Below are positions 8,504-13,072 of a DNA stretch of 23,045 bases, one piece after another; positions within the stretch are counted from its first letter, which is position 1, and every line of letters starts with the position of its first letter. Source of the stretch: a virus; the IMG/VR virus record IMGVR_UViG_3300025769_011870, positions 1-23,045 of that record. The stretch is one strand, 5' to 3'. The translations under genes and the position numbers were made by a program. The notes below the pieces were generated by a model. That model was given only the letters and a program-made list of their open reading frames with translations, did no database searches and was not told the origin of the DNA.

Positions 8504-9363
8504 AGGGCGTCTGTGATCTTTCCTAAATAGCCTGTGGGTTTCTTCGTAGAGGTTAAAAGCTCGTGGAGTTCTTCATAGTGGAACTCAAAGCGTGGGTCGA
8601 TTTCGTAATAACGGCGAATTTGGGGATGAACCTCTCTTTCGGCGGGTTCGAGGATGATGGAAAGATATTTTTGCTTTCCTCCTCGTTTCTTGTCAATGCC
8701 GTTTTTGCTGCCTTTGATGCCTGCCTTTTTCATCATTTCTTCGACGACAAATTTGACCATTGTGTCGGAATATTCGAAGTCTCCAAGTTGGGCGTCGGTG
8801 AGATGGGAGATGGCAACGAGGTCTTTGAAGGTTTTATTGTCGGAGCGGTCTGTTGGGTAGAAAAAAATTTGGCTCGCGAAATCGCCTTCGCCTTTGAGGG
8901 TTTTCACGTCGTGGACGGAGCAACGACGGACATTTACCCAATCGACAACCCGGTTCTTTTCCTTTATTTCGCCCGAAATGTCGGGCAGGCCGGCGATGCC
9001 TTCGTCGTCAAAAATGTGTAGTTTCGTAAATGTGCCTTTTATGAGCCGCTGGTTCTTTGTGACTATTCTAAGGTTGTTTTCCTCGACCCTTATGCTTCCT
9101 GCGAGGTCTGAAAGTGGCACCAACCCTGCGAGTCCAAGCAAGAGCATTAGCCTTTGCCAAACGAACCTTTCGTCGTAAGCCTGGAACGGCTCCAAGCCCA
9201 TAAAAGAGAGGTCATAGTCCTCGCTGATCTCGTTGAACCTAAACGGCTCGTTTGATGAGGCGAATAGGACTGGTAATCGCCTCATAAACGCAAAGAGCAA
9301 GGCTGCCGTGGAAGATCCCAAGACAACCTCGCCCCACTCATAGATGTGTCTGTCAAGCCTCAT
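8500..9363 (-). CDS. Unassigned protein, dinucleotide-binding-like N-terminus
   Basis: 287 residues. The opening WGEVVLGSSTAALLFAFM is hydrophobic strand, glycine/small-residue turn, hydrophobic helix. This resembles a Rossmann beta-alpha start of FAD/NAD-binding proteins but lacks the full GxGxxG. LPVLFASSNEPFRF follows as the next strand. Later parts include DVKTLKGEGDFASQIFFYP, a Lys/Gly-rich patch (GSKNGIDKKRGGK) and an acidic C-terminus. I do not recognise a family, though proteins with this opening look familiar from marine phages. It overlaps its neighbours by ATGA at both ends (CPBP protease gene upstream, nucleotidyltransferase-like gene downstream), suggesting a joint function with the latter. 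Confidence 0.7.
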   Translation of the reverse strand: MRLDRHIYEWGEVVLGSSTAALLFAFMRRLPVLFASSNEPFRFNEISEDYDLSFMGLEPFQAYDERFVWQRLMLLLGLAGLVPLSDLAGSIRVEENNLRIVTKNQRLIKGTFTKLHIFDDEGIAGLPDISGEIKEKNRVVDWVNVRRCSVHDVKTLKGEGDFASQIFFYPTDRSDNKTFKDLVAISHLTDAQLGDFEYSDTMVKFVVEEMMKKAGIKGSKNGIDKKRGGKQKYLSIILEPAEREVHPQIRRYYEIDPRFEFHYEELHELLTSTKKPTGYLGKITDAL

Positions 9364-9782
9364 AGAAGAGTTAGCAGGATCCCTGTGGTGTTATGGGCAA
9401 TGTGCGCTGCCATTGGATATTTGATGCTGCCAGTCGTCAGCCTTAGCCAGCCCAAAAAGAAAGAAATGGGCATAAGTGCTAAAATGATCTCATAGTCCAT
9501 ATGACAAACCGCGAACAGAATAGATGTTATGATCATAACTTGTTCTTGGTTGAACACTCTGCTAAAAATCCGCCACAAAAAGCTTCGGAAAGCCCACTCT
9601 TCCAAGAGGGGAGACAGAATCACAAGACTAAAAACAATAAAGTACAAACTCACGCCAAAAACGTCCTCTGACAGCTTCTGGAGTTCTATGGCGGACTCGG
9701 GCGCTTCTGTCAGAGCAGAGTAAATGGTAGAAACCAATAGATTTATTAGCATACCACCTGCTATTGGCGTGAGGTACTTCAC
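9360..9782 (-). CDS. CPBP-family intramembrane metalloprotease
   Basis: 140-residue integral membrane protein of the CAAX protease/bacteriocin-processing (ABI/CPBP) superfamily, shorter than the usual 200-280 residues. The three signatures are present: EEWAFR (Glu61, Glu62, Arg66), FAVCH (Phe90, His94) and HIAHN (His127, Asn131). Four hydrophobic segments run approximately 7-24, 43-60, 82-99 and 102-117, with a final one at 123-140. Family members cleave or modify membrane proteins and prenylated peptides, and some protect against bacteriocins. Its substrate here is unknown; the position next to the lysis-type genes suggests action on the host envelope. The start is GTG, overlapping the small basic gene upstream by 4 bp. 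Confidence 0.85.
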   Translation of the reverse strand: MKYLTPIAGGMLINLLVSTIYSALTEAPESAIELQKLSEDVFGVSLYFIVFSLVILSPLLEEWAFRSFLWRIFSRVFNQEQVMIITSILFAVCHMDYEIILALMPISFFLGWLRLTTGSIKYPMAAHIAHNTTGILLTLL

Positions 9783-9928
9783 TTTCCTTGCCCTCTATAC
9801 TTCTTCTTATAACCCTTTGGAACAATGCCGTTGGAGTTCAAACTCTTACGCCTAGTTCCACGTCCATTTCCAATGCTCGTCTTCTTCATTCTGCGACCCC
9901 TTGGAGCCCAGCTATTCTTCACACTCAT
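9779..9928 (-). CDS. Small basic phage protein ending in KKKYRGQGK
   Basis: 49 residues from ATG at 9928, just inside the glutaredoxin 3' end (17-bp overlap). About one third of residues are Lys or Arg, with no acidic residue visible. The core GNGRGTRRKSLNSNG and the C-terminus YKKKYRGQGK resemble small basic proteins I recall from T4-like marine phages, whose role is unknown. It may bind nucleic acid or ribosomes. The open reading frame is supported by an upstream GGAGGTGAG, close coupling to both neighbours and an exact GTGA junction with the CPBP gene. Confidence 0.8.
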   Translation of the reverse strand: MSVKNSWAPRGRRMKKTSIGNGRGTRRKSLNSNGIVPKGYKKKYRGQGK

Positions 9929-10157
9929 CACTCACCTCCGAGAAATAAACTTTTAGATCTGAACAACCGCCGATGAACTCTCCATCACAAAAAATTTGTG
10001 GGAGGGTTTCGCATCCGGTGGCTTCGGTAAGAGCCTCTTTTGCCTCTTCATCGTTCGTCACGTTAAACACACGAAAGTCGCAACCTTGTCTTACAAGGAT
10101 GCTGACTGCCTCAACACAAAAGTTGCAATAACTTGCCGTATATACATCATATGTCAT
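9912..10157 (-). CDS. Glutaredoxin
   Basis: 81-residue thiol oxidoreductase. The start MTYDVYTASYCNFC places the CxxC active site at Cys11/Cys14; the family also shows the cis-Pro TLPQIF (51-56) and the glutathione-binding GGCSDL (63-68), where GGxxDL is typical. Length is normal for glutaredoxin. I chose ATG at 10157 because it overlaps the transglycosylase stop (TAATG) and has GGAGGAG upstream; a longer in-frame reading is only the preceding gene in another frame. It probably reduces the phage ribonucleotide reductase or other proteins, alongside thioredoxin. Its place among lysis-type genes is not explained. Confidence 0.92.
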   Translation of the reverse strand: MTYDVYTASYCNFCVEAVSILVRQGCDFRVFNVTNDEEAKEALTEATGCETLPQIFCDGEFIGGCSDLKVYFSEVSDECEE

Positions 10158-10621
10158 TATTCGTTCTCCTCCTCTGTTTTTAGCTTCTTCCTCATAGAAG
10201 AAAGTGCCTTGTCGTATTCCAGCTTGGAAGCATAAACCTTTCTGGCATAGTTGTAAGACCACTGTGGAGGGTTGTAGCCTCCGTTGTAGAAAGCCAAAGC
10301 CCTAACAGGGTCTTGCTGAACTTCTAGGCTATTAAGAAAGTCGATTCCAACCTTGAGGTTCTGAATAGGGTTGTAGAGATCTCTTGCTTCTAGGCGCTGC
10401 ATGCGATGCCAGTGCCATCTTGGAATTACTTGCATAAGACCTCGATCATCTGACTCACCAAGAGCATTTGGGTCACAACGACTCTCGTGGTGCACAACGC
10501 TCAAAATAAGTGTCTTTTCAACACCGTTGCTTTCTGAGATCATCTCAATGTTTTCGGCCAACTCTGGTGTTCCAAAGGTGGTGCCGCAAACTGCTGCTAC
10601 AAGATTAACCCACTTCATCAT
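10157..10621 (-). CDS. Lytic transglycosylase (SLT domain), exported
   Basis: 154 residues. A hydrophobic N-terminus (MMKWVNLVAAVCGTTFGT) looks like a signal peptide or anchor, though its basic end is weak. The SLT domain follows: ILSVVHHESRCDP with catalytic Glu46, then the GLMQVIP motif (61-67), LYNPIQNLKVGIDFLN, and ALAFYNGGYNP, which corresponds to the AYNAG motif. It cleaves peptidoglycan between MurNAc and GlcNAc. The C-terminus is a Lys/Glu-rich tail. The start overlaps the matrixin stop region by 17 bp and it follows the PAS/two-TM and matrixin genes, so it is the likely endolysin or a cell-wall entry enzyme. Two adjacent ATGs (10621, 10618) are both possible. Confidence 0.92.
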   Translation of the reverse strand: MMKWVNLVAAVCGTTFGTPELAENIEMISESNGVEKTLILSVVHHESRCDPNALGESDDRGLMQVIPRWHWHRMQRLEARDLYNPIQNLKVGIDFLNSLEVQQDPVRALAFYNGGYNPPQWSYNYARKVYASKLEYDKALSSMRKKLKTEEENE

Positions 10622-11270
10622 TTACTCTCCTCGTTCGAAATGCTAAAATGGCTGCCCACCAAAAAGGAAAGTTTCCTACATGCTGACAACCTGAATCTTT
10701 GACTTCATCAGCAGTAGTTCTATTGTAAATAGTTGTTACTGCCTCGATATCGTCATTATGAATAGTGCGGATCTCGCCAGGCTTTATTCTGTCGTGCATA
10801 ACCGCCTCTCTAACCTCGCTATGGCCAAGGCCAAGGGCATGACCGACTTCGTGGCGAACAGTTGAAAGAAGATCGACGCTCAATGGATCATCGCCCCAGC
10901 CGTTAGGTGGATCGGCTTGAAGCAGAAGATCAAACTCCGCAATCACGCCTTCCGAGTTGACCCAGACACGAGTTACTGCGAGGGTTGTGGATGGGTGCTC
11001 CCACTCTGTAAGAAACCCAACCTCGCTGATTCCATTTTGTTCGTCTCTTGCCTCGTCTGTTGGGCGGCCTCCATAAAAGCGAACCAGACTATCGCTGGCT
11101 TCTTCCCACTCTTCAAAGCCTTCGTGGATAATGTCAATAGCCTCTGGGAATGGTGCTGATCCAACATCCATCCGGTAATCAATGGCCGTTTCAGCCCACC
11201 TGATAGGGACGCCCTCAGGGGTTTCCTGTTGCGTCCAAGCAAGCGCGGCGGTTGCCATAAGTGTTAGCAT
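10605..11270 (-). CDS. Matrixin-like secreted zinc metalloprotease
   Basis: 221-residue metzincin protease. A short hydrophobic start (MLTLMATAALAWT) suggests a signal peptide. The zinc motif HEVGHALGLGH places His140, Glu141, His144 and His150; Met158 in REAVMH fits the Met-turn. Upstream, EWEEASDSLVRF and the Asp/Gly stretch PPNGWGDDP match matrixin structure. The C-terminus is Cys195, a short hydrophobic stretch FPFWWAAILAF (201-211), then Arg/Arg: a tail resembling MYXO-CTERM or PEP-CTERM-like sorting signals of Myxococcota surface proteases, here without clear family proof. No propeptide Cys switch is visible. It has its own promoter. It might cut the host envelope or cell-surface proteins during lysis. 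Confidence 0.9.
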   Translation of the reverse strand: MLTLMATAALAWTQQETPEGVPIRWAETAIDYRMDVGSAPFPEAIDIIHEGFEEWEEASDSLVRFYGGRPTDEARDEQNGISEVGFLTEWEHPSTTLAVTRVWVNSEGVIAEFDLLLQADPPNGWGDDPLSVDLLSTVRHEVGHALGLGHSEVREAVMHDRIKPGEIRTIHNDDIEAVTTIYNRTTADEVKDSGCQHVGNFPFWWAAILAFRTRRVNDEVG

Positions 11271-11278
11271 CCTTCCCT

Positions 11279-11319
11279 CTCCTCATAAATAACATAGCAC
11301 GAGGAGCAGAGGAAGTCAA
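11279..11319 (-). promoter_or_regulatory. Promoter of the matrixin gene with RBS-covering repeat
   Basis: TTGACT (11314-11319), 17-bp spacer, TATGTT (11291-11296). The 6-bp inverted repeat 11279-11284/11301-11306 has a 16-bp gap and is centred 1 bp from the middle of the -10 box. Its downstream arm, GAGGAG in the mRNA, is the ribosome-binding site 8 bases before the ATG. Confidence 0.8.
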
Positions 11320-11320
11320 G

Positions 11321-12046
11321 CTAATCTTGGACTCTATTTCTGGAGTCGAACACAGAGGCCATCGCAGATCCCAAAATGCCTGTTAGGACCAAAAGAACTC
11401 GTTCGATCATCGCAAGACCATCGGGGTCGGTTGTGCCTGTGGCCCACTGAGCGACGATCAGCATTCCAAGCATCATTATGAGTCCAACAGTTCCAGCAAA
11501 GATCTGCCTCAAAAGGGTTATTTGACCTGAAAGGCGTTTTTGTCTCAATAGGCCGTCTTCTGCTAAAAGCTTGGCTTCGTTTGCCTCTGATTTGGCTATT
11601 TCTGCTTTTTTGAGGGCTTCTTGTAGTTCTTTTTCTCTTTCTACCTCTGGGCCTCTGTCTTTGAAGAAAGCAACGAAATAACGCTCTTCTGTGTTTCTGA
11701 CATCACAAACATTTGCTGACAGAGGAGCAAGCGTTCCATCGGCTCTAACACCTTCTAACTTTCTCCAAGCACCCATAATGGTGCTTGGTCTAACCTTGCC
11801 ACCGTTGGCTTTTTCAACATATGTGGAAACATTTGATCTGTGGTTTTGAGCTATTTTTGGTGGCATCAAAGAGCGCACATCCAGCCCGATCATCGCCTTT
11901 TGACTTGGGTAGCCAAAAAGAGCGACGGCAGGGCCATTAGCATAGAGTATTTCTATGTTGCCGCTGCCGTCTGTTGGGACTGAGCCAATAACCATTGCTA
12001 TTTGTGCTCTTTCACCGATGTATTCTATCGTTTCTATGACTTTCAT
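11321..12046 (-). CDS. PAS domain fused to coiled coil and two TM segments
   Basis: 241 residues. A PAS domain (about 15-130) shows ILYANGPAVALFGYPSQ, a LMPPKIAQNH loop, RADGTLAPLSANV and YFVAFFKDR, the usual PAS strand order. The region corresponding to the FixL heme His (RPSTIMG) has no His, so a heme sensor of that type is unlikely. Residues 134-170 are a Glu/Lys/Ala coiled coil. Two transmembrane helices (182-202 and 212-233) with a short loop containing TTDPDG end the protein, and a charged tail follows. There is no kinase, cyclase or DNA-binding output, so the membrane pair is the output: possibly a holin whose opening is controlled by the PAS domain. The gene lies immediately before protease and transglycosylase genes. 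The start was chosen at ATG 12046. Confidence 0.8.
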   Translation of the reverse strand: MKVIETIEYIGERAQIAMVIGSVPTDGSGNIEILYANGPAVALFGYPSQKAMIGLDVRSLMPPKIAQNHRSNVSTYVEKANGGKVRPSTIMGAWRKLEGVRADGTLAPLSANVCDVRNTEERYFVAFFKDRGPEVEREKELQEALKKAEIAKSEANEAKLLAEDGLLRQKRLSGQITLLRQIFAGTVGLIMMLGMLIVAQWATGTTDPDGLAMIERVLLVLTGILGSAMASVFDSRNRVQD

Positions 12047-12083
12047 CAACAATAAGTAGTTTGTTGATTACGCTTCCTCCTCC
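12047..12083 (-). promoter_or_regulatory. RBS separated from the PAS gene start by a hairpin
   Basis: The only good ribosome-binding site (GGAGGAGG, within 12073-12083) lies far from ATG 12046. Between them CAACAA (12066-12061) and TTGTTG (12052-12047) form a perfect 6-bp hairpin with an 8-base loop that ends right at the ATG. Folding it would shorten the effective spacing to about 9 bases. Confidence 0.55.
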
Positions 12084-12301
12084 CAAAAAACGCCATCCTC
12101 TTCTACAAGAACCTTGGCTTCAAACCTCTCAATAAGAAGATCCCAAAACTCTTTTCCAACAACTGCACACTCTTGTCCAAAGTAGTTTTTTAGCCACTGA
12201 TGGCGTTCCCAACTATTCGGCATCGGAACAAAGATGGAACTGATCTCTGTGTTTCCGTAGGCGTTGATGTTTGTTCTTCTAATGAACTGGCATCTTTTCA
12301 T
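12068..12301 (-). CDS. Small protein of unknown function
   Basis: 77 residues from ATG at 12301, with the shared GGAGAGCGAAGA leader in front. The sequence begins MKRCQFIRRTNIN and continues with NSWERHQWLKNYFG and FWDLLIERFEAKV; the C-terminus is acidic. I see no known domain. The gene starts only 12 bases after the U-tract of an intrinsic terminator, so its expression depends on read-through of that terminator or on an unseen promoter. Its last codons carry the strong AGGAGG that probably serves the PAS/TM gene. This makes it the first gene of the lysis-like group. Confidence 0.7.
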   Translation of the reverse strand: MKRCQFIRRTNINAYGNTEISSIFVPMPNSWERHQWLKNYFGQECAVVGKEFWDLLIERFEAKVLVEEDGVFWEEEA

Positions 12302-12313: not shown

Positions 12314-12345
12314 AAAAAAAGGTGTTAGGCAACCACCCACCTAAC
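12314..12345 (-). terminator. Intrinsic terminator at the end of the structured RNA
   Basis: Hairpin GTTAGG (12345-12340)/CCTAAC (12329-12324) with a 10-base loop, followed after ACC by seven T residues (12320-12314). The T-run is followed almost at once by the ribosome-binding site of the 77-residue gene, so it could also act as an attenuator. Confidence 0.8.
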
Positions 12346-12554
12346 TGACTGTTTCCAGTCCCACCCGCAGATTAGCAATCATGGAGTTTATCCCTCTCCT
12401 GCTTGATCCTTACAATCGGGGTAACTTCATTATGGAATAGAGTGGTGGGGTTTAAACCCACAGGTGTTCAAGTATTCCTTTGTTAGACTCTTATTCCTTG
12501 AACCGGGTCGTTTATCGTCTCAGTAGAACCCTGCGTAATACCGCCTCACTCTAT
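12314..12554 (-). ncRNA. Structured RNA or attenuator leader with tRNA-like end domain
   Basis: About 240 nt without a convincing reading frame, running from a strong promoter to an intrinsic terminator. From the predicted start (12554) eight bases, ATAGAGTG, pair perfectly with CACTCTAT (12444-12437). Directly abutting is a 5-bp hairpin GTGGG-TTTAAAC-CCCAC (12461-12445) with a 7-base T-loop-like sequence, and after the stem come T and CCA (12436-12433). In between are three possible hairpins, including GTTCAAG/CTTGAAC around a 24-base loop. After position 12433 there is a long imperfect hairpin, then GACTG-GAAA-CAGTC (12360-12347), a perfect GNRA-type stem, and the terminator. I cannot match it to a known RNA. 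It lacks a cloverleaf and an anticodon arm of normal size. Confidence 0.65.
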
Positions 12555-12875
12555 GTTCATAGTATACCACCCACCAATCCGTCCGTCAAGTCTTGAAAGT
12601 AGATTTACAGAGGTGTGAGTGCCATCTGGATCGGGCGAAATCTCTTGCAACTTATCATCAAGCATTTTGATTTCTTCTGCCGCTCTGCGACAAAGAGACT
12701 CAAGACGAAGAACCTCAAGAAAATAAACTTGTTCATCCAAGCGTCCGTATTTGATGAGCATACGCTTCATAACAGCAGTTGCAGTAGATTCAGGAAAATA
12801 CTTTTTTGCGTTTTGGATAACTTCATCGTCAGACATTTGAGCGATTTCCTTTGCAATTTGATCTTCCATGCTCAT
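12546..12875 (-). CDS. Small helical protein of unknown function
   Basis: 109 residues starting MSMEDQIAKEIAQMSDDEVI. It is mostly helical, with probable coiled coil across YFLEVLRLESLCRRAAEEIKMLDDKL (about 50-80). I recognise no family. ATG at 12875 overlaps the upstream stop in ATGA. The 3' end doubles as the promoter of the structured RNA: the last codons (GGWYTMNIE) contain the -10 box TATACT. This dual use may constrain the C-terminal sequence. Confidence 0.72.
   Translation of the reverse strand: MSMEDQIAKEIAQMSDDEVIQNAKKYFPESTATAVMKRMLIKYGRLDEQVYFLEVLRLESLCRRAAEEIKMLDDKLQEISPDPDGTHTSVNLLSRLDGRIGGWYTMNIE
12561..12589 (-). promoter_or_regulatory. Strong promoter of the structured RNA
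   Basis: TTGACG (12584-12589), 17-bp spacer, TATACT (12561-12566). It lies inside the 3' end of the upstream 109-residue gene, and the predicted transcription start coincides with the first base of the closing stem of the RNA. Confidence 0.85.
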
Positions 12876-13072
12876 TTCATAACCTTCACATAGCCAGTAG
12901 GCTCTTGTGTCGTTTCACCGTGGAACCACCAGATAGTCAGGCGGTCTTGAAAATAATCATTGTGGCGATAGAAGTCTTTTTCAATGTCTATTAAAAGACC
13001 AATATCATGCTTTTTCTTTTTGAAGTTTTCGTCCCACTGACTTTTTGGTCTTACAAGATCACCGACTTTCAT
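12872..13072 (-). CDS. Small phage protein, MKVGDLV...PTGYVKVM type
   Basis: 66 residues, beginning MKVGDLVRPKSQWD and ending PTGYVKVMK. The layout (GDLV at the start, GLLIDI, RLTIWWFHG, GYVKV at the end) is a short all-beta pattern, like small SH3/KOW-type barrels often seen in phage genomes. Function is unknown. It starts with the repeated GGAGAGCGAAGAATG leader and its ATG overlaps the upstream TGA. A binding role towards host RNA polymerase or ribosomes would fit a KOW-like fold but is speculation. Confidence 0.75.
   Translation of the reverse strand: MKVGDLVRPKSQWDENFKKKKHDIGLLIDIEKDFYRHNDYFQDRLTIWWFHGETTQEPTGYVKVMK

What the first reader, a model, noticed from the sequence alone, without database searches (positions are those of the whole stretch)
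12314..12554. Promoter-to-terminator structured RNA with a tRNA-like closing domain, possibly an attenuator
A consensus promoter places transcription start on the first base of an 8-bp stem (12554-12547 with 12444-12437) that abuts a 5-bp hairpin with a 7-base loop and is followed by T-CCA. This acceptor/T-arm geometry (8+5 bp) recalls tRNA-Sec or the tmRNA tRNA-like domain, but the interior has large loops and no normal anticodon arm. A GNRA-type hairpin and an intrinsic terminator follow, just before a gene start. The loop sequence CTAAC (12486-12482) can pair with GTTAG of the terminator, so an antiterminator switch controlling the lysis-like genes is possible.
Basis: partly seen in the sequence, partly recalled or inferred. 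Interest (0 to 1): 0.75.

Follow-up and report, generated by a model that had tools for sequence, protein, structure and literature searches.

The report
Phage RNA folded like transfer RNA
Large uncultivated phages carry a short, undescribed RNA gene whose conserved fold resembles a leucine transfer RNA that cannot decode; it probably acts as a free-standing RNA during infection, perhaps by imitating tRNA, although what it binds is unknown.

Summary
The promoter, helices and terminator described are real and belong to a conserved family. I found the RNA in 26 further IMG/VR contigs; the whole ~240-nt unit is 70-99% identical while most flanking genes differ. The 5' domain (window 12554-12437) is a four-arm cloverleaf supported by compensatory changes (9 pairs changed on both sides, 98% of cells paired). 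It also has a probable loop-loop pairing between the anticodon-like and variable-like arms. A covariance model trained on the family independently finds a distant copy inside a phage tRNA cluster (E=3e-15). Outside the family its best matches are tRNA-Leu(UAA) genes. So the tRNA-like reading is right, but as a class II, tRNA-Leu-like fold. The 8-bp acceptor and the CCA are not family features: the eighth pair forms in 11 of 18 rows, and CCA occurs only in the window's closest relatives. The CTAAC/GTTAG antitermination switch is not conserved. Rfam, ARAGORN, phage, plasmid and genome collections gave no described match. Most likely it is a promoter-driven non-coding RNA acting in trans as a tRNA mimic. 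The fold and family are well supported; the function is inferred. A cis role at the head of small-gene operons is the main rival.

The parts
12561..12589 (-). sigma-70 promoter TTGACG-17-TATACT; in this phage the -35 lies in the 3' codons of the upstream gene
   Evidence: relatives L165, L086, L264, L336 have unrelated or diverged upstream DNA but TTGACA-17-TATACT/TATAAT/TATATT at the same distance
12437..12554 (-). Domain I: tRNA-like cloverleaf RNA (118 nt)
   Evidence: alignment A3 of 19 distinct sequences, covariation; model R2 finds L293
12547..12554 (-). P1 5' strand (acceptor-like; columns 1-8, of which 2-8 pair across the family)
   Evidence: pairs 2:117 and 3:116 change on both sides
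12437..12444 (-). P1 3' strand; 12437 corresponds to position 73 (always U)
12533..12544 (-). P2, D-arm-like 3-bp hairpin GCG-GUAUUA-CGC, invariant even in L293; lacks the D-loop GG of tRNA
12505..12531 (-). P3, anticodon-arm-like 5-bp stem with 17-nt loop; 10-nt insert 12524-12515 relative to tRNA-Leu
   Evidence: in L293 the stem is conserved through changed bases (read by eye)
12517..12520 (-). kissing-loop strand AGAC in the P3 loop (pairs with 12488-12485)
   Evidence: C-G 10, U-G 8, U-A 1 at the last pair
12485..12488 (-). kissing-loop strand GUCU in the P4 loop
12466..12503 (-). P4, variable-arm-like 7-bp stem with 24-nt loop
   Evidence: 4 of 7 pairs with compensatory change
12445..12461 (-). 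P5, T-arm-like 5-bp stem, 7-nt loop; a full T-loop UUCAAAU in L336 and L303
   Evidence: 2 pairs with compensatory change; alignment
12433..12436 (-). UCCA after P1, not conserved in the family
12317..12430 (-). Domain II: separable 3' element (P6, P7, P8)
   Evidence: occurs with its own promoter-like sequence and without adjoining domain I in L312 and L305
12363..12422 (-). P6 hairpin (long form); short UUGUA-loop form in other members
12347..12360 (-). P7 GAAA hairpin; helix kept through compensatory changes in L336 and L299, tetraloop not kept
12314..12345 (-). P8 intrinsic-terminator-like hairpin and T run, directly before the next gene's ribosome-binding site
   Evidence: L299 keeps the hairpin with different bases
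12068..12301 (-). downstream 77-aa gene (no Pfam or PHROG match); replaced by other genes in relatives
12546..12875 (-). upstream 109-aa gene whose stop lies inside P1; fused to the RNA at TATACTATGA (12566-12557)
   Evidence: comparison with L165, where two genes lie between this gene and the RNA

Best explanation
The feature is a small non-coding RNA gene carried by a group of large, uncultivated tailed phages. It has its own sigma-70 promoter whose start falls at the first helix, a 118-nt tRNA-like cloverleaf (domain I), and usually a second hairpin domain ending in a weak terminator (domain II). Shown: domain I is conserved in sequence and fold across phages with different neighbouring genes; it has class II tRNA topology closest to tRNA-Leu(UAA), with a shortened D loop lacking GG, a 10-nt insert in the anticodon loop, an enlarged variable loop, and no conserved CCA. 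Probable: the insert and the variable loop pair with each other, so the anticodon region is not free to decode. Inferred: it is a decoding-dead tRNA derivative that accumulates in the infected cell and acts in trans by occupying a tRNA-binding factor (a synthetase, a tRNA nuclease of a defence system, or a modification enzyme), while partial read-through of the terminator lets the same promoter feed the small-gene operon behind it.
For: Family of 26 contigs besides the window, by pattern scans, nhmmer/blastn and model R2. Nine pairs with change on both sides, 98.0% cells paired vs 92.3% shuffled and 34-43% for slid partners, covariation 0.227 vs 0.120. L293, not used for training, found at E=2.8e-15, 4 nt after a tRNA-Gln and upstream of a tmRNA. 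Best non-family hits of R2 are all tRNA-Leu(UAA): 31.2, 24.9, 23.5 and 23.1 bits; then mostly Pro, Arg, Met, another Leu. Rfam's tRNA model is the best of 4227 families on member L303 (23.1 bits, E 0.0086, below its cut-off of 29). With insert and P4 loop removed, W and L303 match tRNA-Leu best of 45 tRNAs, above 100 of 100 shuffles. Promoters with P1 4-12 nt behind the -10 in 15 of 20 upstream regions, several unrelated in sequence. Independence from neighbours: different genes on both sides; domain I stands alone with a T run in L293, L305 copy 1 and L312, and domain II stands alone behind its own promoter-like sequence.
Against: No transcript data. No partner protein or target is conserved beside it. 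A sequence-only model (R3) finds L293 but no tRNA, so descent from tRNA-Leu rests mainly on structure; for a third member (L332) the tRNA-Leu match does not exceed shuffles. The tRNA elbow (GG in the D loop, UUC in the T loop) is missing in most members, which may prevent binding by factors that read it. In most members the RNA stands directly before an operon, which also fits a cis role. P2 and most of P3 never vary within the alignment, so covariation says nothing for them there.
Confidence: 0.42

Rival explanations
1. Cis-acting operon leader: domain I modifies RNA polymerase or the nascent transcript, as the HK022 put RNA does, so that the terminator hairpin and later terminators in the early small-gene operon are read through; or it sets the read-through level by attenuation.
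For: In most members the RNA lies between a promoter and the first genes of a small-gene operon, with a terminator-like hairpin directly before the ribosome-binding site and no room for a promoter in between. The terminator is weak in many members (ACC between stem and a 3-5 T run). HK022 put RNAs are ~70-nt cis elements behind early promoters that suppress terminators (PMC9378689).
Against: In L293 the RNA lies in a tRNA cluster with its own T run. In L312 and L305 copy 1 domain I ends in a T run, other genes follow, and the operon keeps only domain II behind its own promoter-like sequence, so domain I is not needed in cis there. The put fold (two stem-loops) is different. The specific CTAAC/GTTAG switch is not conserved.
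Confidence: 0.28
2. tRNA-like processing signal: RNase P and 3' tRNA nucleases recognise the cloverleaf and cut it out, defining the 5' end of the operon mRNA behind it.
For: Class II tRNA topology, location inside tRNA clusters in L293 and L331.
Against: In most members transcription already starts at or a few nt before P1, so a 5' cut would remove little; no conserved CCA; elbow motifs are missing; no operon follows closely in L293.
Confidence: 0.12
3. A true tRNA or tRNA pseudogene: either it decodes after removal of the insert, or it is a decaying tRNA without function.
For: In W, L086 and one L305 copy removing the 10-nt insert leaves a 7-nt loop CUUAAAC with a UAA anticodon.
Against: The corresponding triplet varies among close relatives (UAA, UAC, UAU); no CCA, no D-loop GG; compensatory changes and 94-100% pairing in every helix show ongoing selection on the fold; ARAGORN does not call it.
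Confidence: 0.06
4. Base-pairing small RNA whose invariant segment GGUAUUACGCAGRGUUCWACUG pairs with a host or phage RNA.
For: This segment is far more conserved than the helices, including in L293.
Against: No complementarity to E. coli 16S, 23S or 5S rRNA beyond shuffles; the segment is largely inside P2 and P3; host unknown, so mRNA targets were not searched.
Confidence: 0.12

Closest known systems
tRNA-Leu(UAA), class II tRNA (Rfam RF00005)
   Same: order and lengths of arms: 7-bp acceptor, 2-nt link, 3-bp D stem, 1-nt link, 5-bp anticodon stem, long variable arm, 5-bp T stem with 7-nt loop stacked directly on the acceptor; model R2 aligns the two end to end
   Different: no D-loop GG, 10-nt insert in the anticodon loop, 24-nt variable-arm loop, U at position 73, CCA not conserved, triplet at 34-36 varies
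tmRNA tRNA-like domain / tRNA-Sec
   Same: acceptor directly stacked on a T-like arm
   Different: no tag reading frame or pseudoknots of tmRNA; family acceptor is 7 bp, not 8; Rfam tmRNA, found elsewhere on L293, is a separate gene there
HK022 put RNA
   Same: structured RNA near the start of phage early transcripts, before terminators
   Different: ~70 nt with two stem-loops (PMC9378689); here a ~118-nt cloverleaf that can also stand alone
GOLLD, ROOL and OLE ornate RNAs
   Same: structured bacterial or phage-associated non-coding RNAs of uncertain function (PMC12286853, abstract only)
   Different: described as large RNAs; no Rfam match to any family at the curated cut-off here

Membership tests
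tRNA (RF00005) | score at or above Rfam's gathering score, or an ARAGORN call | tested here: not met
   window: no match; best member L303 23.1 bits, cut-off 29
tRNA (RF00005) | cloverleaf with stacked T arm and acceptor | tested here: met
tRNA (RF00005) | 7-nt anticodon loop with a constant anticodon | tested here: not met
   17-nt loop; triplet varies UAA/UAC/UAU
tRNA (RF00005) | 3' CCA, encoded or added | tested here: inconclusive
   encoded CCA only in W, L165, L086 and contigs of the window's own phage; addition after processing not testable
tRNA (RF00005) | D-loop GG and T-loop UUC that form the elbow | tested here: not met
   GG absent in all; UUC only in L336 and L303
tmRNA (RF00023) | tag reading frame and Rfam/ARAGORN match | tested here: not met
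   the L293 tmRNA is a different gene
Riboswitch/attenuator of one gene | constant association with one downstream gene or pathway | tested here: not met
   downstream genes differ among members
Riboswitch/attenuator of one gene | conserved alternative pairing with the terminator (the CTAAC/GTTAG proposal) | tested here: not met
   broken in 8 of 15
put-type antiterminator RNA | suppression of downstream terminators in cis | not testable with these tools
   needs in vitro transcription
Any described Rfam family | match at gathering score | tested here: not met
   window and 8 member loci

The most novel reading that the evidence does not exclude
A new class of viral tRNA mimic: a tRNA-Leu-like RNA whose anticodon loop has been lengthened and locked to its own variable arm, made from its own promoter by large phages to titrate a tRNA-directed host factor such as a defence nuclease or leucyl-tRNA synthetase.
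Probability: 0.3. Interest if true: 0.85.

Novelty: new variant of a known kind. Interest (0 to 1): 0.62.

Why it matters
It adds an undescribed, covariation-supported RNA family to large phages and gives a concrete, testable case of a tRNA-like scaffold reshaped into something that cannot decode. If it works in trans it would show phages countering or steering the translation machinery or tRNA-based defence with an RNA alone; if it works in cis it would be a new kind of operon leader.

Tried and rejected
tRNA-Sec/tmRNA reading: no Rfam or ARAGORN match, 7-bp acceptor, CCA not kept. CTAAC/GTTAG switch: broken in 8 of 15 members. GIR1, snoRNA and lncRNA matches: chance level. Similarity of the invariant core to the 16S rRNA 530 loop (15 of 17 bases): reached by 1/60 and 4/60 shuffles, so not distinguishable from chance after several comparisons. 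Complementarity to E. coli rRNAs: not above shuffles. Protein-coding: the upstream reading frame stops inside P1 and gene boundaries differ in relatives while the RNA stays. Host or reference phage: no copies in phages, plasmids or genome contigs with the queries used. The L293 kissing pair (UUGU/ACAA) is suggestive by eye, but 4-nt complementarity between two such loops is expected by chance. Sequence-only model R3 does not find tRNAs. The genome-contig scans used two exact or near-exact patterns only, so distant copies in bacterial genomes could have been missed.

Full report
What was checked. The window is a 23,045-base virus record with UvsX-like recombinase, DnaE-type polymerase, DnaB-like helicase and 5'-3' exonuclease genes. 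Thermodynamics alone is not convincing (z -0.31 and -1.63), and Rfam and ARAGORN give nothing for the window.

A family exists. Pattern scans of viral contigs brought in relatives, and nhmmer/blastn found homologues of the whole ~240-nt unit at 98-99%, 95-96%, 85-90% and down to 70% identity. Counting distinct contigs, 26 besides the window hold domain I, among them contigs of 232,533 and 280,913 bases, the latter with two copies. The sequence is conserved from the -10 or the first helix to the terminator, while the flanking genes differ. Searches of 50,697 phage records and 72,556 plasmids and pattern scans of 84,980 bacterial and archaeal genomes found no copy, so the host is unknown.

Domain I, 12554-12437. 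Nineteen distinct sequences align over 118 columns with one 1-nt gap and two missing end bases. RNAalifold, without guidance, predicts the same structure as the window's own fold minus the end pair. Counting pairs, with the loop-loop pairing added by me: 98.0% of cells are standard pairs (shuffled 92.3%, slid partners 34-43%), nine pairs have changes on both sides (shuffled mean 6.3), 42 cells have such changes (shuffled 14.3), and the covariation score is 0.227 (shuffled 0.120; slid at most 0.069). P1, P4 and P5 carry most of this. P2 is invariant and P3 nearly so, and therefore untested within the alignment. In the distant member L293 the P3, P4, P5 and P1 stems are kept with partly or wholly different bases (read from the sequence). 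The model R2 was built without L293 and finds it at 56.2 bits, E=2.8e-15. The 4-bp pairing between the P3 loop (12520-12517) and the P4 loop (12488-12485) is kept in all 19 sequences, with C-G, U-G and U-A at one position. I call it probable.

It is tRNA-like, of class II. Across about 100 viral records searched with R2, the best matches outside the family are tRNA-Leu(UAA) genes: 31.2 bits (E 2.3e-8), 24.9 bits (E 1.5e-5) and 23.1 bits (E 8e-5), plus 23.5 bits in L052; weaker ones are mostly tRNA-Pro, -Arg, -Met and another -Leu. The alignment is end to end: 7-bp acceptor, two linking bases, 3-bp D stem, one linking base, 5-bp anticodon stem, long variable arm, T stem stacked on the acceptor. 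The differences are systematic. Four D-loop bases including GG are missing; ten bases are inserted after the CU of the anticodon loop; the variable-arm loop is 24 nt; position 73 is always U. The triplet that follows the insert varies (UAA in the window, UAC or UAU elsewhere). Rfam's own tRNA model, below its cut-off, is the best of 4227 families on member L303, which keeps a full T loop UUCAAAU. With insert and P4 loop removed, the window and L303 sequences match tRNA-Leu best among 45 tRNAs and better than 100 shuffles, but L332 does not exceed shuffles, and the sequence-only model does not find tRNAs. Structural kinship is therefore well supported; common descent is likely, not proven.

The eighth P1 pair is formed in 11 of 18 rows. 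CCA is present only in the window, contigs of the same phage, L086 and L165; other members read UGUA, UGCA, UUUU or UUC-A. The proposed CTAAC/GTTAG switch fails in 8 of 15 members, with GTTAG unchanged.

Promoter and mobility. In the 20 upstream regions examined, 15 have a sigma-70-like promoter with P1 starting 4-12 nt behind the -10. Several are unrelated in sequence, and one of the weaker ones is a 9-of-12 match. The window itself shows how the unit moves: in L165 the homologue of the upstream gene reads ...GGTATACTATGACTGAG and the RNA, two genes later, reads ...GCTATACTGTGAACATAG; in the window the two are joined at TATACTATGA, which leaves out the two genes and turns the end of the upstream gene into the promoter. 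Two members without a promoter of their own (L331, L293) lie in tRNA clusters, L331 behind a 5' tRNA half.

Domain II, 12430-12314. It consists of P6, P7 and P8. P7 is rebuilt with other bases in L336 and L299, and P8 in L299, so the helices matter. It is separable: in L312 and L305 copy 1 domain I ends in its own T run, unrelated genes follow, and domain II appears some 460-630 nt later behind a promoter-like sequence, TTGTAA-18-TATAAT in L312 (by eye). Domain II thus looks like a leader of the small-gene operons, and domain I like an independent RNA often placed in front of it.

Mechanism. Shown: fold, conservation, promoter placement, independence from particular neighbours. Inferred: a free RNA that cannot decode and imitates a tRNA to engage a tRNA-binding factor, with read-through feeding the operon behind. 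The main rival is a cis function on the transcript, of the kind known from HK022 put (PMC9378689), because in most members the RNA heads an operon and no promoter fits between the terminator and the ribosome-binding site. The stand-alone copies argue against that rival but do not exclude it.

Literature. Six searches of the open library for tRNA-like, structured or decoy RNAs of phages and put-type leaders and one on RNase P and tRNA-like leaders showed no description of this RNA in titles or abstracts; most subscription papers are not held.

Noticed in passing
IMG/VR contigs of L086, L085/L166, L323, L327, L328, L316, L299, L264, L305, L311, L332: The RNA lies unusually often within about 1 kb of a contig end, and several contigs break inside it or at its terminator, as if identical copies in different contexts break the assembly; this fits a mobile or multi-copy element.
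   Followed up: partly
window 12566-12557 and L165 6160-6200: Microhomology junction TATACTATGA fused the RNA to the 3' end of the upstream gene, whose codons now supply the -35 region: a natural promoter swap.
   Followed up: yes
L293 513-1339: A phage tRNA cluster holds tRNA-Gln, the divergent RNA about 4 nt later, and a phage-encoded tmRNA with tag ANDDIEMFEDVAFAA.
   Followed up: partly
L331 4225-4170 (-): The RNA is preceded by the 5' half of a tRNA gene (GCGCCCGTAGCTCAGCTGGATAGAGCAACGGC), suggesting recombination into a tRNA gene.
   Followed up: no
L312 and L305, ORFs behind domain I: Proteins beginning MKITKRQLR..IIREA follow domain I in both split loci; the shared N-terminal motif is unexplained here.
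   Followed up: no
window 12872-13072 and homologues in L165, L264, L305, L318: A repeated family of small proteins beginning MKVGDLV fills the variable small-gene operons, often in tandem; the window copy has no Pfam or PHROG match.
   Followed up: no
window 12544-12528: The invariant core GCGGUAUUACGCAGGGU matches 15 of 17 bases of the 16S rRNA 530 loop (GCGGUAAUACGGAGGGU); reached by 1/60 to 4/60 shuffles, so possibly chance.
   Followed up: yes
window 9360-12052: Downstream genes include a protein with a borderline PAS match, a matrixin-type metalloprotease, an SLT transglycosylase and a CAAX protease-like protein: an unusual set for a phage.
   Followed up: partly
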